Source: a virus
IMG/VR virus record: IMGVR_UViG_3300048778_000113
Coordinates: 1-20,109 of that record
Strand: one strand, 5' to 3'
Length of the DNA stretch: 20,109 bases
How positions within the stretch are numbered: position 1 is the first letter of the stretch; each line of letters starts with the position of its first letter. Below are positions 4,047-9,626 of this stretch, one piece after another. The notes below the pieces were generated by a model. It did no database searches, had not been told where the DNA came from, and saw nothing but the letters and a program-made list of their open reading frames with translations. The translations under genes and the position numbers were made by a program.

Positions 4047-4829
4047 TTAGAGATCCACCATCTTCTGGTGTAAAATTCGGCACTTCGGGTCAACGTGTAT
4101 CTTGTACCCCAACTCTTTGGCCGCAAAGCAAAAGCGGCTATCGTCCGTGTCGATATCTGCGCACTGGATCCCGTTTTCTTCCCATTCGATTATGCCGGAC
4201 CGAAACCACGGATAAGGCATCTTTTCAAAAACCCCCTTTTTAACGATCATTAAGCCCATTCCCGCATAATCGACTTCTATCAATCCCTTTTCGTTGGTCG
4301 GCTCTTTCGGGATATCGGCAATAGTCAAAGGCCGAACTTCATTATACCCTGTGCCGCGCTTCCAGAAGCCGCAGGCCGCTTTATTTGTGTCATCTATAAC
4401 ACCGCCGCCGTACTGCCGGTACCAGGCTGCCGCGATATCCACATCATGAGAAAGCAACTGGAGAACGTCTTGCGTTTTGATAATATTATCTGAATCAATC
4501 CAGATCATCCGGTCATAGTCTGCTATTAAGCCTTCCCACGGTTTTTGGTTGACACGATTTCCCATAGGTAAGGTCGGCCTCAATACGCCATTTCGCACAA
4601 CGTAAATATTGCAGCTTTGAGCATTTACGGGAATAATGCGCTTCCCCATGACAGATAATTCATTGATCATCTGCATAACGCCCATAGCCTGCTTCCAACT
4701 TGACGGCGCGTTCCCGGGCAGGCATACGACATAATCACATACCAATCCCTTTCCCTGTGCAGGTTCATCAGCCTTCTTAACGTTTATTTTCTTCATAATA
4801 TTTTTCCAATCGAAAACTCCTTTTTTCAT
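4047..4829 (-). CDS. GT-A fold glycosyltransferase (GT2-like), 260 aa
   Basis: The start is ATG at 4829, with AGGAGG 7 bases upstream and 11 bases after the previous stop. The frame is open up to 4925, but that extension would overlap the preceding gene and has no ribosome site. A DxD motif (D112-S-D114, in I-W-I-D-S-D-N) is preceded by a beta strand and should bind the metal and nucleotide sugar. Residues near 190-200 carry Y-A-G-M-G-L-M-I-V-K-K, the usual acceptor-side segment. D-T-D-D (227-230) may hold the catalytic base, and H254 near the C-terminus may be the third metal ligand. This resembles stand-alone phage glycosyltransferases. The sugar and acceptor are unknown. The acceptor could be a virion protein, since the gene directly follows the beta-rich tail gene. 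Confidence 0.85.
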   Translation of the reverse strand: MKKGVFDWKNIMKKINVKKADEPAQGKGLVCDYVVCLPGNAPSSWKQAMGVMQMINELSVMGKRIIPVNAQSCNIYVVRNGVLRPTLPMGNRVNQKPWEGLIADYDRMIWIDSDNIIKTQDVLQLLSHDVDIAAAWYRQYGGGVIDDTNKAACGFWKRGTGYNEVRPLTIADIPKEPTNEKGLIEVDYAGMGLMIVKKGVFEKMPYPWFRSGIIEWEENGIQCADIDTDDSRFCFAAKELGYKIHVDPKCRILHQKMVDL

Positions 4830-4840
4830 CCTAAATCCTC

Positions 4841-6406
4841 CTATAATGGTATTTCGCTCATGCTTGTTGCTAAATAGATTGCCGATATGACGGCATTTGA
4901 ATTGTACGCCCTGACTTCGCAGCAATCGGCCAATAAAGGTTTTATCCGCTGCGGATCAGAAGAAGAAACTTTCGCCGATATTGTTTTCGGCCCTCTTTTC
5001 AGTAATGGATAGATAATATCAATGGTAACCGGGTAGGTTGTCGCTATAACTTTTATCACAGAGAATGTTTGCTTCGGGTATTTATAGCGTTTAGACTGAA
5101 GGGCCGCGCTCCGATAAACTCCGTAACGATTGGCAAATGACACGATGTTTGGAATGCCTGTAGTGATATTTGGAACGACAATCAATATGGCGCCGCCGGT
5201 TACACCGTCTAAAGTGGCCGTGATCGCCACTCTTCCTAATTTAAAGGTTTTGACTAATCCGGAAGAAGATACGGCTGCCACCGAAGGATCGGACGACACC
5301 CATATTACCTGGTTCGTATAATCTTCCTCGCCTATAATTGCCGAATACTGCCATGCCTCGCCAGGCGTTAAATATTTCGTTGAAGGCAAAACCTTTATTT
5401 GCGTGAAAATAACCTCTAACATTGCAGCTGCGGAAAAATCCCCGATATCAGCGGTTATGGTCGTGAAACCGCCATTTACTGCCGTGGCCAATCCGGAATC
5501 ATCTACCGTGGCAACGTCCTCATGATCAGAAGAAAAATCACATTGAGAAGTTATATCTTCCTGTGAAGAATCGTCATAAGTCCCTATAACGGTGAATTGC
5601 TGTGTTCCGCCTTTATCAATATTTGCCTGTCCGGGAGATATCTGGATAGATGTAAGAACCTTTGGAGGAGCAAAATTTATTCCACTATTGCCGCCTCGAT
5701 CTTGGCAACCATTCGATGTATATGCGTTAAATGTGACGCCACCAGTTACGGCACAATTATTAAATGTAGTATAACTTAAATCAACAATGCCACTTGGGAT
5801 GTTTACCGTAAAAGAGGCGGTGCCTGTATTGGGCTGCAAAACAGCTAAACTTGCCAAAGAGGAAATTACAGAAAATAAATTCGTGCTTATAAATGGTATT
5901 GGATCCCCAAACGTAGTTTCTATATTAAATACCGCGCTAGCAAGATCTAAAGTATTAAATATAATACTATTGGCATTTATTGAATAAAATTCGGCATTGC
6001 CTTGGAATTCTATAATATCCCAATTCATGATATGCCACGGATCGTTAAGCGCATAATTTGAATGAGATATAAATTTTCCAGTTACATTAACGGAAGTAAA
6101 CGGCCCAGAAACAACCATTTGAGTGTCGAATATGCCAGTTGGCCCTATCGTCATCGGATTGGCAAGTACGATGTTGAAATTAGGGATCACGCCACCGGCG
6201 GGATTACCTTCTATATAAAAACGATTAGGTGATAACGCTAAGGGGAATGTTATAGTCTGGCCTGTGATGGTAATAGAATGAAAATCAACTATTATTATAT
6301 CGCCATCAACAGGGACACCGGCACCGCCAGCACCGCCGCTCGTCAATGCCCAATGTGCGGGATCGTCTGCGCTCCCGGAATTTCCTACCCAATAATATGT
6401 TGCCAT
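4841..6406 (-). CDS. Beta-helix plus two BIG2 (Ig-like) domains, ending in a nozzle-type C-terminal domain, 521 aa
   Basis: The ATG at 6406 follows the TAA of the preceding gene directly and in the same frame. A weak GGCGG site precedes it by 5 bases. Residues 1-250 look like a phage beta-helix or beta-sandwich module: the opening Y-Y-W-V-G-N-S-G-S with A-H-W and a GAGVP turn, and later strands ending T-F-N-A-Y-T-S-N-G-C and G-G-N-S-G-I-N-F. Residues about 250-333 and 335-412 are two BIG2 domains (W-V-S-S-D-P-S-V-A-A-V pattern, then G-x-x-x-I-T-A). Residues about 425-521 do not fit these. They match the end of podoviral stabilisation/nozzle proteins (L-Q-S-K-R-Y-K-Y-P...V-I-A-T-T-Y-P-V-T, closing L-A-T-S-M-S-E-I). 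Surface attachment is the likely role. Confidence 0.8.
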   Translation of the reverse strand: MATYYWVGNSGSADDPAHWALTSGGAGGAGVPVDGDIIIVDFHSITITGQTITFPLALSPNRFYIEGNPAGGVIPNFNIVLANPMTIGPTGIFDTQMVVSGPFTSVNVTGKFISHSNYALNDPWHIMNWDIIEFQGNAEFYSINANSIIFNTLDLASAVFNIETTFGDPIPFISTNLFSVISSLASLAVLQPNTGTASFTVNIPSGIVDLSYTTFNNCAVTGGVTFNAYTSNGCQDRGGNSGINFAPPKVLTSIQISPGQANIDKGGTQQFTVIGTYDDSSQEDITSQCDFSSDHEDVATVDDSGLATAVNGGFTTITADIGDFSAAAMLEVIFTQIKVLPSTKYLTPGEAWQYSAIIGEEDYTNQVIWVSSDPSVAAVSSSGLVKTFKLGRVAITATLDGVTGGAILIVVPNITTGIPNIVSFANRYGVYRSAALQSKRYKYPKQTFSVIKVIATTYPVTIDIIYPLLKRGPKTISAKVSSSDPQRIKPLLADCCEVRAYNSNAVISAIYLATSMSEIPL

Positions 6407-7930
6407 TTACACCGCCAAATATAAAATGCCTGTTCCGGGATCTCTGTAACCGGCAGAGGCATAAAATGTTAAATCGCTCAGTTCTTTCTTTGCAATGTTG
6501 AAAATAAATCCCGCTGATTGCCCGTTGCTGTTCGTATAAAAGCCCACATAATGACCTTCCCAATAGAAAGCTGATATTGATTCGGGATTGTAAATCCGCA
6601 GCCAATCTTCGCGGGTCATTATCTCTTCCGTTAGAACGGCTCTGAATGAGGGCGATATAGCTACTACGCCTTCAGGAGACGGATAAATAACCGTGTCGCC
6701 GGCCTGAACCGTTCCGCGTTTCGACATCGAAGCAAAGCCAATATCCATATCTTCCATGACAACATTAGAAGGATCATTGCCTACGGCCAGCTTCGGCTTT
6801 CCGGACGTCAAAACAACAATAGTAGTGCCGAACGCTCCCAGGGCCACAATCGGCTTATCTACCGGCTTTTGATAAGATACAGGCCATGCATGGGGATAAT
6901 AAGGAACTGACCGGCAGAGCGTACTCCCGAAAAATCCGGCGAGAGAACCGTCTGGAAGAGCGATAAGCCCCTGAATTCCCGTAGGCGCTCCATCCCATTC
7001 CGCGCTGCCTAAAACTTCTCCAAGATCAGCGTCAAGAGTTGTGTCTGTGTAATCGGCAGCGGCTATATCTATTTCATCTAAAAACTGATATTCCGCGCCG
7101 GTCGAACTCTGATTTATCCGGTAAATGCGCTTTGTTTCTATGTTGTAATCGGAGCCCGCCGTTGTGTCCATGCCGGAAAGGATAACTTTATCGCCATCCC
7201 AAACGTCAACCAATGCAGATACGGGAGAAGGCGGACCTTCTGAGCCGTAGCCATTCACCAGGGTATAAATATATCCCCTGGTTTCCATTAACGTAGGGTC
7301 ATTAATCCCGGAGGCCGTGATTGAACCGGTGCCGCTTTGCGTGGAAACGGTCGGATTTTCAACATAAGAGCCGCCAGACGTCAATATTGTGTCCGTTATA
7401 ACGCCATTCGAGACGGTGTAGGTACCTATCGCACCAGTACCGCCGCCGCCTGCAAAAATAAGCGAGCTCGTTCCGTTACTCTCGCCGCAATTAGAATCTG
7501 TTATCGTCAGTTTCGTTACAGCCTCTTTGCTTGGGAATGGCGTGATAATAGGGGCTGACGCGGGCGGCAAAGGACTTGGATTGTAAGATTTTTGAGGAAA
7601 AGGGCCAGAACCGGATTTATAAAGAGATTGATCTGTTACTCTTAACTCTCCGTTTTCCGTGAAATACACTCGCCCATAAGTGTCATTTGCCAAAGGTGCA
7701 GTTACAACATCCGTGTCGTTACTGAATAGAAAAAATTTGCCGTCAATATTCCGATAAATAGAGGCCGGTTTAAATGTTAATTCCTGAATAAGCTGATTTT
7801 CTTCGAGGGCAGTTACGCCGCCGCGGTCAAAACGGCAATTCTTAGCGACTTGAGATTTTCCTTCCGGCAAAAGAGTGGGGTCTATTATCCGGGGCATCAA
7901 TCCGCCAAATTGTGAGACATTGATCAGCAT
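6407..7930 (-). CDS. Tail nozzle / DNA-stabilisation-type protein, lacking the usual C-terminal domain, 507 aa
   Basis: The start is ATG at 7930, overlapping the TAA of the preceding gene (TAATG), so translation is probably coupled. The N-terminus (M-L-I-N-V-S-Q-F-G-G-L-M-P-R-I, then A-x-N-C-R-F-D-R-G) and the core (Y-I-Y-T-L-V-N-x-x-G-S-E-G-P-P-S-P at 220-236, R-I-Y-R-I, P-Y-Y-P-H-A-W-P at 343-350, S-K-R-G-T-V near 403) match the podoviral tail-hub protein that closes the portal channel, similar in role to T7 gp12 or P22 gp10. Residues about 155-207 are an inserted Gly/Thr/Ser-rich repeat (GGGGTGA, then V-S-N-G-V-I, then T-S-G-G-S-Y) usually found in tail fibres. The protein stops at L-Y-L-A-V, where relatives continue for about 100 more residues; that part appears at the end of the next gene. 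Confidence 0.8.
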   Translation of the reverse strand: MLINVSQFGGLMPRIIDPTLLPEGKSQVAKNCRFDRGGVTALEENQLIQELTFKPASIYRNIDGKFFLFSNDTDVVTAPLANDTYGRVYFTENGELRVTDQSLYKSGSGPFPQKSYNPSPLPPASAPIITPFPSKEAVTKLTITDSNCGESNGTSSLIFAGGGGTGAIGTYTVSNGVITDTILTSGGSYVENPTVSTQSGTGSITASGINDPTLMETRGYIYTLVNGYGSEGPPSPVSALVDVWDGDKVILSGMDTTAGSDYNIETKRIYRINQSSTGAEYQFLDEIDIAAADYTDTTLDADLGEVLGSAEWDGAPTGIQGLIALPDGSLAGFFGSTLCRSVPYYPHAWPVSYQKPVDKPIVALGAFGTTIVVLTSGKPKLAVGNDPSNVVMEDMDIGFASMSKRGTVQAGDTVIYPSPEGVVAISPSFRAVLTEEIMTREDWLRIYNPESISAFYWEGHYVGFYTNSNGQSAGFIFNIAKKELSDLTFYASAGYRDPGTGILYLAV

Positions 7931-8667
7931 TATTTACCCTTTGCATTGTTTTGCGCGTCCACGTTAGACTTCAATCCCAAATCCTGTAAAAACGTTTGCC
8001 GATACATTATAGCTTTCTGTGAGGCTCCCTGCTGATTCGTTTCTTCAGACAAGCATTTCCATATCATGCCATTTTTAAAAGCTATCTTGTAAGAAGGATC
8101 GAGGGGAAAGTCCGTGTTATCCTCAGTAATATCGGGCGGCGGTTCGCTTAATAGAAATTTAACAAAGCCTTGATTGCTTGCCGGCTGCGGCGGGAATGAA
8201 TAAAAAACCAACGGGTTTCTGCTGTCTTTTATCCCATGGACGACAACGGGATCGGCGTCATACGTCTGCCAATCGGGGACAAGATGATCTATCGCATTTT
8301 TTTCAAGTCCGATGATAGAAAGTCCTGTCGTGGATCCTGTCGTCCCCATGTTACAGACAATATCCAGGATAGATATTGCGGCAATAAAGGTTGTCGCCAA
8401 AGTCGTTCCAAGCGCTGATAGTCTTTGCTCCGTACCGGCATTTAATTGTAATACCCTTGGTACAGGATAGGCTTCTGGCTTCAACTTGACGATTTCTAAA
8501 ATAACCGGATTGATATACATGAGCATGACGGACGGCGGCCAGGTATCGCCGGTGATATCCCTTAACTGCTGCTGCACTTCAAGCAGAATGTCGCCTATTT
8601 CTCCGCTTAACGATTGCTCCCCGCCTTCGGGAGTCCCGCCGTCGGCTGTTACTATGTCGTCTGCCAT
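7930..8667 (-). CDS. Head-tail adaptor-like protein (DUF6682-type), 245 aa
   Basis: The ATG at 8667 has AAGGTGAT about 5 bases upstream. Residues 24-60 carry the signature of a podoviral adaptor family: L-x-x-V-Q-Q-Q-L-R-D-I-T-G-D-T-W, then L-M-Y-I-N-x-x-I-L-E-I-V-K-L-K-P-E-A-Y. A strand with L-N-A-G-T-E-Q-R-L and a D-P-V-V-V-H-G-I segment follow. The C-terminal half has Y-S-F-P-P-Q-P and an E-P-P-P-D-I motif. The acidic, Gly-rich first 20 residues look disordered. Family members lie between capsid and nozzle genes, as here, and are thought to bridge portal and tail. The family name is from memory and not checked. Confidence 0.65.
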   Translation of the reverse strand: MADDIVTADGGTPEGGEQSLSGEIGDILLEVQQQLRDITGDTWPPSVMLMYINPVILEIVKLKPEAYPVPRVLQLNAGTEQRLSALGTTLATTFIAAISILDIVCNMGTTGSTTGLSIIGLEKNAIDHLVPDWQTYDADPVVVHGIKDSRNPLVFYSFPPQPASNQGFVKFLLSEPPPDITEDNTDFPLDPSYKIAFKNGMIWKCLSEETNQQGASQKAIMYRQTFLQDLGLKSNVDAQNNAKGK

Positions 8668-8675
8668 AAATCACC

Positions 8676-9626
8676 TTACATGAACGTATCTAATCCCGTT
8701 CTGCATTGAGTGGGGATCAATCTTCCCCGGCTTATCATTACAGAATCAAATTCTCTTTTAAAAAGCGCCATAAAGCCTAAATCGTCTTCAACAACAGCGG
8801 TCCCTTTGGCAATTATCCGGATAACGCCCTCTTTGAAAATTTCATCAAAACGGCCATCCCACGGAATTACCTGTGAGGGAATCGTCAAATCAACAAGCCT
8901 CTGATTGTATTTACCTGTGACGTTAATATCAACGACACACTCCGGTTTTATAATCATGGTATTGCCGATGATCTTGTACGTAGAAGGCCGGACGGTGGGA
9001 TATTGAAAAGATTCTCCCCAATAAGAGTAGTTCATCCACCATTCATCCGTATGCTCGCCCTGGCCATCGCCCAAGTAATTAGGCTGTAGAAGCCTTTTTC
9101 GTCCTTCCCAATTAGGAGGCGAATTCTCCGAAGAAACAATTACATAATAGCCTGGCAGAAGATTGAGCCCTGCCTGAGTTGTAATCGTCTGAATGCCTGT
9201 CCCGACCGTCAGAGTTGACGTTGAATTCCCGATATTTTGGGCTGGCATTCCCGGCACTCCGGCCAATGCTATAAACCAAACGGATAAAGTATCTGTCCCG
9301 CTTGACGTGGCAACATTGACAACAAGTTCTCCGGTGTCATTGTCATAACTTTGAACAGCCCCGGCCATCCATTCATCGGTTTGCTCAACGGATTTCGGAC
9401 GCTCGGCCATGCTTTCAAAGTCTGACGGCAAAGTCGCTGATCTTCCAAAGGCCGGTATATATAAATCGAGTTCCCCGCTGGCTATTAAATCCGATTTACT
9501 ACGCAAGAGGTTTTTATAAATAAGCGACTGAATGGAATTGGCCGCCTGATAAATAGTTATGCCGCTTGCTGAAGCCTGTCGGCCAAGTCGCGGCAATACC
9601 ACTTTTAATAAATCAGATACCAGCAT
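8676..9626 (-). CDS. Head-tail connector / tail protein with inserted fibre-like beta module, 316 aa
   Basis: The ATG at 9626 follows GAGGG at about 5 bases. Residues 1-85 are helical with an L-P-S-D-F turn; residues 205-316 return to a mixed fold (T-Y-K-I-I-G-N-T-M-I-I, then a helix I-F-K-E-G-V-I-R-I-I-A-K-G). This two-part layout is typical of podoviral adaptor proteins. Between them, about residues 88-170, lies a beta module common in tail fibres: V-Q-S-Y-D-N-D-T-G-E-L-V-V-N-V, then L-T-V-G-T-G-I-Q-T-I-T-T-Q-A-G-L. It seems to be an insertion in the connector. I know no exact family name for the core. The order (capsid, small head protein, this gene, DUF6682-like gene, nozzle) supports a head-tail role. 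Confidence 0.65.
   Translation of the reverse strand: MLVSDLLKVVLPRLGRQASASGITIYQAANSIQSLIYKNLLRSKSDLIASGELDLYIPAFGRSATLPSDFESMAERPKSVEQTDEWMAGAVQSYDNDTGELVVNVATSSGTDTLSVWFIALAGVPGMPAQNIGNSTSTLTVGTGIQTITTQAGLNLLPGYYVIVSSENSPPNWEGRKRLLQPNYLGDGQGEHTDEWWMNYSYWGESFQYPTVRPSTYKIIGNTMIIKPECVVDINVTGKYNQRLVDLTIPSQVIPWDGRFDEIFKEGVIRIIAKGTAVVEDDLGFMALFKREFDSVMISRGRLIPTQCRTGLDTFM

What the first reader, a model, noticed from the sequence alone, without database searches (positions are those of the whole stretch)
4841..7930. Nozzle protein split in frame: its C-terminal domain sits on the next gene behind a beta-helix and two BIG2 domains
The protein at 6407-7930 has the N-terminus and core of a podoviral tail-hub/stabilisation protein but stops at L-Y-L-A-V, where family members continue about 100 residues. 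The final ~95 residues of the next gene (4841-6406) look like exactly that missing part (S-K-R-Y-K-Y-P, V-I-A-T-T-Y-P-V-T, L-A-T-S-M-S-E-I). The two genes are in one frame with TAA immediately followed by ATG. This suggests about 425 residues of surface-binding domains were inserted into the hub protein, with a stop-start at the junction, so the hub is made in two pieces or as a 1029-residue readthrough product.
Basis: partly seen in the sequence, partly recalled or inferred. Interest (0 to 1): 0.8.

Follow-up and report, generated by a model that had tools for sequence, protein, structure and literature searches.

The report
Phage tail nozzle split into two genes
In this short-tailed phage the DNA-gating tail nozzle is encoded as two separate proteins, the second carrying the nozzle's missing last domain behind surface-facing modules, and related phages have made the same kind of cut several times independently, which suggests that the missing domain acts as a plug-in socket for exchangeable host-contact modules.

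Summary
The 507-aa protein (6407-7930, minus strand) is a podoviral nozzle (PHROG 511; relative of PDB 8jov, phage GP4) that stops in a beta-turn where nearly all relatives continue about 100 residues. Those residues sit at the C-terminus of the next gene (4841-6406; residues 420-521), after about 419 residues of other domains. The match is specific: a C-terminal-domain (CTD) profile built from other displaced copies finds this one at E=3e-31 and, in 22,714 ORFs, hits only nozzles and displaced copies.

The split is neither an error nor unique. Sister phages at 58-65% identity have it too, one with two CTD-bearing proteins. By parsimony it arose about five times. In several phages the CTD gene lies behind other genes, so readthrough cannot make the protein there. 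Single-gene nozzles with domains inserted at or next to the same site also exist.

Best explanation: a nozzle core plus a separate carrier protein that completes the adaptor-binding platform non-covalently and presents exchangeable surface modules where T7 has its fibre dock. The carrier gene is probably translated by coupling across TAA-ATG. The split and its recurrence are shown; the trans-assembly and host-binding roles are inferred.

The parts
6407..7930 (-). Nozzle core gene (507 aa, P0001); ends in the first strand of a beta-hairpin (...GILYLAV)
   Evidence: PHROG 511 E 1.9e-112; PDB 8jov_A E 6e-56; profile to position 468 of 470, with no CTD hit
7316..7528 (-). Extra module inside the nozzle core (about residues 135-205), absent from single-gene relatives L018 and L019
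   Evidence: alignment A2; weak match to phrog_460 (E 2.2e-4) and phrog_701
6407..6409 (-). TAA stop of the nozzle core, directly followed by ATG
   Evidence: sequence; the same TAA-ATG junction at the same site in sister phage L189
6410..6416 (-). Shine-Dalgarno-like GGCGGTG before the carrier's ATG (moderate: -4.3 kcal/mol)
   Evidence: sequence; duplex energy
4841..6406 (-). Carrier gene (521 aa, P0002)
5672..6406 (-). Carrier residues 1-245: MATYYWVG module, the native N-terminus of free-standing phage proteins; fold uncertain
   Evidence: low-confidence model
5438..5653 (-). BIG2 domain 1 (residues 252-323)
   Evidence: Pfam Big_2, two stretches, E 3.3e-23
5174..5407 (-). BIG2 domain 2 (about residues 334-411)
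   Evidence: second Big_2 stretch; PHROG matches at 335-410
4844..5149 (-). Displaced nozzle C-terminal domain (carrier residues 420-521)
   Evidence: pLDDT about 88-94 in the fused model
7930..8667 (-). SU10-type adaptor protein, the probable partner of the nozzle platform
   Evidence: Pfam SU10_adaptor E 3.4e-11; PHROG 399

Best explanation
A split (two-polypeptide) podoviral nozzle. SHOWN: the nozzle chain is cut in the turn of a beta-hairpin after its conserved core; the remaining ~100-residue domain is the C-terminus of a second protein whose N-terminal part is unrelated modules (here MATYYWVG module + 2 BIG2); the same kind of cut occurs in relatives by about five independent changes, with different modules (LamG+BIG2, BIG2 alone, FN3-like) or with the domain alone; the displaced domain is conserved about as well as attached ones. 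INFERRED: nozzle core and carrier are made as separate chains, the carrier by termination-reinitiation at TAA-ATG. The carrier's C-terminal domain folds onto the core, completes the platform that binds the adaptor ring, and so fixes about one carrier per nozzle subunit (six per virion). The modules project from the site that corresponds, by chain order, to the T7 nozzle's fibre dock (between propeller and platform), where they would touch the host surface. A cut chain lets modules be swapped, duplicated or moved without remaking the nozzle core.
For: Nozzle identity: (Foldseek: GP4 nozzle 8jov E 3.6e-24, then SU10, T7 and, lower, P22 gp10). CTD identity and specificity. PDB profile search with a mixed CTD set finds only 8jov_A, residues 423-575, E 1.6e-20. 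Splits in relatives. Tree: five changes by parsimony, and the near splits as one clade are rejected (p-AU 2e-44). Sister pairs that differ: L193/L245 (split) with L019/L192/L240 (one gene), support 100/99; L247 (cut) with L246 (one gene, 72-aa insert), 100/100. Conservation: core-minus-CTD identity gap 12.9 points between split phages, 17.4 between single-gene ones. L239 and L252 carry the CTD as a ~90-aa protein alone; L189 has two carriers. AlphaFold of the read-through chain: core and CTD confident, insert not, pTM 0.61. Published structures: the T7 platform binds the adaptor and is built from the C-terminus plus strands of the N-terminal 45 residues; the fibre dock connects propeller and platform (PMC6702177); the SU10 nozzle is similar (PMC9509320). 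A GP4-type nozzle homologue is in virions by mass spectrometry (JC1 gp61, PMC9144972).
Against: No experiment and no chain-chain co-fold was possible. Assignment of the CTD to the platform rests on published T7 and SU10 topology, not on coordinates examined here. In the fused model the second hairpin strand was taken from carrier residues 2-6 because of how the alignment was built, so the model cannot show the real hairpin. The carriers-only CTD profile does not reach 8jov directly; the link runs through single-gene intermediates. Host binding by the modules is untested. The window is a 20-kb fragment, so a second CTD copy elsewhere in the genome cannot be excluded.
Confidence: 0.8

Rival explanations
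1. Stop-codon readthrough makes a 1029-residue nozzle with a large in-chain insert, alone or as a minority product.
For: The two genes are in one frame here, in L189 and in L193; single-gene nozzles with comparable inserts exist (L263, L269), so such a chain would be viable.
Against: TAA is the commonest stop in the window; no recoding signal was seen (none was systematically sought); carriers in L191, L236, L239, L169 and L254 are separated from the nozzle by other genes; carrier residue M1 matches the native start of free-standing proteins.
Confidence: 0.05
2. The break is a sequencing or assembly error, or a decaying gene.
For: One point change would join the two ORFs; the exact junction was not found in any other viral contig, and the near-identical contig L002 ends before it.
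Against: Sister phage L189, 65% identical, has TAA-ATG at the same site; L236, L190 and L191 stop within a few residues of it. Both ORFs are intact and the CTD is conserved.
Confidence: 0.02
3. The carrier is an independent tail-surface protein that borrowed the CTD as an anchor; the nozzle works without it, and the CTD binds another copy or site instead of completing the core.
For: The N-terminal module and BIG2 domains are typical of free-standing surface proteins; L189 has two CTD carriers.
Against: Among the loci examined no split nozzle keeps its own CTD, and displaced CTDs keep pace with the core. In five phages the carrier's CTD resumes at the very next hairpin strand after the nozzle's last one.
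Confidence: 0.12

Closest known systems
GP4-type podoviral nozzle (PDB 8jov_A; PHROG 511; JC1 gp61, annotated 'head closure' or 'internal virion protein')
   Same: Core sequence and fold; C-terminal domain homologous through single-gene intermediates; a virion structural gene in the tail region
   Different: In the known proteins core and CTD are one chain of about 524-615 aa; here the CTD is on the next protein after about 419 residues of other domains
T7 gp12 nozzle (platform, propeller, fibre dock, tip)
   Same: Foldseek match; by chain order the insertion site falls between propeller end and C-terminal platform, where T7 has its fibre dock
   Different: T7 gp12 is one chain and docks separate trimeric fibres; here modules are fused to the displaced CTD
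SU10 nozzle (Kuravirus)
   Same: Same overall fold; Ig-like domains inserted into the nozzle chain
   Different: SU10's Ig-like domains lie between propeller blades 2 and 3 and the chain is uncut
Nozzles L263 and L269 with an in-chain repeat (propeller-like) insert, and L246 with a 72-aa insert
   Same: Extra domain at or just after the same hairpin
   Different: Single gene, no stop; a likely intermediate stage (L246 is sister to cut L247)

Membership tests
Podoviral nozzle, GP4 / PHROG 511 type | Conserved N-terminus and propeller core (PHAWP motif, G and W positions) | tested here: met
   PHROG 511 E 1.9e-112; 8jov_A E 6e-56; invariant columns
Podoviral nozzle, GP4 / PHROG 511 type | C-terminal (platform) domain in the same chain | tested here: not met
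   The ORF stops at the hairpin; CTD found only on P0002. It is filed as a nozzle core, not as a whole nozzle protein
Podoviral nozzle, GP4 / PHROG 511 type | C-terminal domain encoded somewhere in the same locus | tested here: met
   P0002 residues 420-521, leave-one-out E 3.3e-31
Podoviral nozzle, GP4 / PHROG 511 type | Nozzle fold | tested here: met
   Foldseek top hit 8jov_A, then other podoviral nozzles; model confident for core and CTD only
Podoviral nozzle, GP4 / PHROG 511 type | Hexamer below a dodecameric adaptor in the virion | not testable with these tools
   An adaptor gene lies directly upstream; no structure of the assembly
Programmed stop readthrough | Continuous frame with a leaky stop and conserved in-frame position in relatives | tested here: not met
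   Adjacent and in frame in window, L189 and L193 only; detached carriers elsewhere; ordinary TAA
Tail fibre / receptor-binding protein | Homology to a known fibre family or a demonstrated receptor | tested here: inconclusive
   BIG2 domains and structural-protein PHROGs; no receptor test possible; no hit for P0002 in isolate phages
   The CTD profile hits only nozzles and their displaced copies; the only PDB hit of the mixed CTD profile is the GP4 nozzle

The most novel reading that the evidence does not exclude
The nozzle C-terminal domain has become a general plug-in connector: phages complete an obligatory tail component in trans with interchangeable carriers. Some, such as L189 with two carriers, build mixed nozzle rings that display more than one kind of surface module, with ring stoichiometry guaranteed because the carrier is structurally required.
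Probability: 0.35. Interest if true: 0.78.

Novelty: new variant of a known kind. Interest (0 to 1): 0.62.

Why it matters
The nozzle retains and releases DNA and is one continuous chain per subunit in the solved structures matched here. Repeated, independent fission at or near one hairpin suggests that it tolerates completion in trans, marks the fibre-dock position as a hotspot for module exchange, and gives a natural attachment domain of about 100 residues that could be tested as a docking tag. It also warns annotation pipelines that truncated nozzles followed by proteins with Ig-like domains may be intact two-part nozzles. No paper found in the held library describes this, though most subscription journals are not held there.

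Tried and rejected
1) Direct search with the CTD alone found no Pfam, PHROG, NCBIfam, isolate-phage or viral-contig relative; it is too diverged from Bcep22-type nozzles, and close intermediates were needed. 2) First CTD profile from isolate phages gave only a modest hit (E 1.3e-5 in a 3-sequence set); superseded. 3) Exact junction pattern in viral contigs: 0 hits. 4) Carriers-only CTD profile against PDB: no hit. 6) AlphaFold of the carrier alone: CTD and BIG2 domains confident, first 245 residues not, so no fold search was made with it. 7) In the read-through model the second hairpin strand was misassigned by the alignment; that detail is not used. 8) L079 looked split in one tally but is cut by the contig end. 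9) L155, L176 and L180 are prophage fragments with partial nozzle ORFs; not counted as splits. 10) PMC11784390 turned out to concern T7, not GP4.

Full report
OBSERVATION. On the minus strand the 507-aa ORF (6407-7930) ends ...LYLAV-TAA, and the next codon is the ATG of a 521-aa ORF (4841-6406) in the same frame. The first is a podoviral nozzle: PHROG 511 at E 1.9e-112 over profile positions 320-751 of 862, and PDB 8jov_A (portal-tail complex of phage GP4) at E 6e-56. Upstream lies an SU10-type adaptor gene. Fifteen isolate-phage homologues are single genes of 524-615 aa that continue past the window's stop.

THE MISSING PART IS ON THE NEXT GENE. The closest single-gene relatives, L018 and L019 (59% and 60% identical), have about 100 further residues. 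Carrier residues 420-521 align to exactly these with 38-39% identity, starting at the second strand of the hairpin (NIVSF against EIVKF and NIVAF) where the nozzle ORF ends on the first strand (LYLAV against LYLLV and LFLVI). A profile made only from displaced copies hits 50 nozzle ORFs and 16 carrier ORFs out of 22,714, and nothing else; the window copy scores E 3.3e-31 when left out of the model.

THE SPLIT RECURS. In 231 distinct nozzle ORFs, 204 have the CTD attached. Split phages, with anatomy: L189, TAA-ATG like the window, with two carriers in tandem (504 aa with one BIG2; about 197 aa with one BIG2). L191, carrier (LamG + BIG2 + CTD) two genes further on. L236, carrier with two BIG2. 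L193/L194/L245, carrier with FN3-like domains directly after the stop. L239/L252, a CTD-only protein of about 90 aa more than 5 kb downstream, behind a protein of about 1700 aa. L169 and L254, distant relatives with small CTD genes. In L190 and L247 the contig ends before any carrier could be seen. Single-gene nozzles with extra domains at or just after the same hairpin are L246 (72 aa) and L263/L269 (about 314 aa of repeats, propeller-like).

INDEPENDENT ORIGINS. A maximum-likelihood tree of nozzle cores (IQ-TREE, 51 rows) puts window, L189, L236, L190 and L191 in one split clade (100/99). L193/L245 are sister to single-gene L019/L192/L240 (100/99), and L247 is sister to L246 (100/100). Parsimony needs five changes, and one clade for the close splits is rejected (p-AU 2e-44). 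The direction of each change (fission or re-fusion) is not proven, and the middle of the close clade is poorly resolved. The cut position also differs: at the hairpin turn in the window clade and L193, later in L239 and L247.

CONSTRAINT. Identity of core minus identity of CTD averages 12.9 points between split phages and 17.4 between single-gene ones, so displaced domains are not decaying.

TRANSLATION. TAA is the commonest stop in the window (11 of 22 scored genes). The carrier's ATG has a moderate ribosome-binding site (-4.3 kcal/mol). Carriers that start at the nozzle stop have weaker sites (-4.3, -2.0, -2.4) than detached ones (-5.2 to -8.3; exact one-sided p 0.012, n = 3 against 6, a comparison made after seeing the data). 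That fits termination-reinitiation coupling, but the sample is small. Readthrough cannot explain the detached carriers.

STRUCTURE. AlphaFold of the read-through chain (TAA read as Q, 43-row alignment) gives confident core and CTD (CTD blocks pLDDT 88-94), a low-confidence insert and pTM 0.61. Foldseek finds the GP4 nozzle first (E 3.6e-24), then cyanophage A4, SU10, T7 and other podoviral nozzles. The Foldseek alignment length (526 columns) is too short to span the insert, so it supports the core, not the CTD placement. In T7 the platform binds the adaptor and is built from the C-terminus together with strands of the first 45 residues, and the fibre dock connects propeller and platform (PMC6702177); SU10 is described similarly (PMC9509320). 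By chain order the window's break and insert therefore fall at the fibre-dock position, and the displaced domain should be the platform's C-terminal part. This is inference from published topology; coordinates were not compared here, and the model's own hairpin is shaped by an alignment artefact.

CARRIER ANATOMY. Residues 1-245 begin MATYYWVG, a start that is invariant at the N-terminus of the free-standing phage proteins aligned. So the gene looks like the 5' part of a free-standing gene, with its own start codon, fused to the nozzle CTD. Residues 252-323 and about 334-411 are BIG2. A surface or receptor role is the usual reading of such modules and was not tested.

MECHANISM. Most likely two chains assemble into each nozzle subunit, the carrier completing the adaptor-binding platform and presenting its modules outward; about six carriers per tail would follow. 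L189's two carriers would allow mixed rings.

NOVELTY. Nozzles, and domains inserted into nozzles, are known. A nozzle cut into core and carrier, repeatedly, was not found in the searchable literature. I rate it a new variant of a known kind.

Noticed in passing
window 7316-7528: The nozzle core carries a second extra module (about residues 135-205, GGGG...SGGSY repeat-like). The split clade (L189, L190, L191, L236) and L242 share it; L018, L019 and L193 lack it.
   Followed up: partly
L002 4156-4311 against window about 8667-8676: A 99%-identical contig has a small extra ORF, apparently a single-pass membrane protein, between the 316-aa gene and the adaptor gene that the window lacks.
   Followed up: no
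window 4050-4829: A glycosyltransferase-like gene (PHROG 1574) follows the carrier; similar genes follow the carriers in L189 and L191.
   Followed up: no
L190 6561 onward; L018 about 7015 onward; L239 about 7557 onward: Proteins just downstream of the nozzle begin with signal-peptide-like sequences, unusual for virion structural genes; the one in L239 is about 1700 aa.
   Followed up: no
L098-L149: The MATYYWVG...WxLTSGGxGGAGVP signature opens many free-standing phage proteins of 370-811 aa; no Pfam family matched this part of the window's carrier.
   Followed up: partly
L269 4343-7858: This nozzle seems to carry two repeat (propeller-like) insertions, one before the core's PHAWP region and one at the hairpin hotspot.
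   Followed up: partly
L189 6522-8638: Two tandem CTD-bearing carriers whose CTDs are 59% identical: either a duplication or a second module source.
   Followed up: partly
L155, L176, L180: Prophage loci with partial nozzle ORFs and no attached CTD; possibly decayed, not examined.
   Followed up: no
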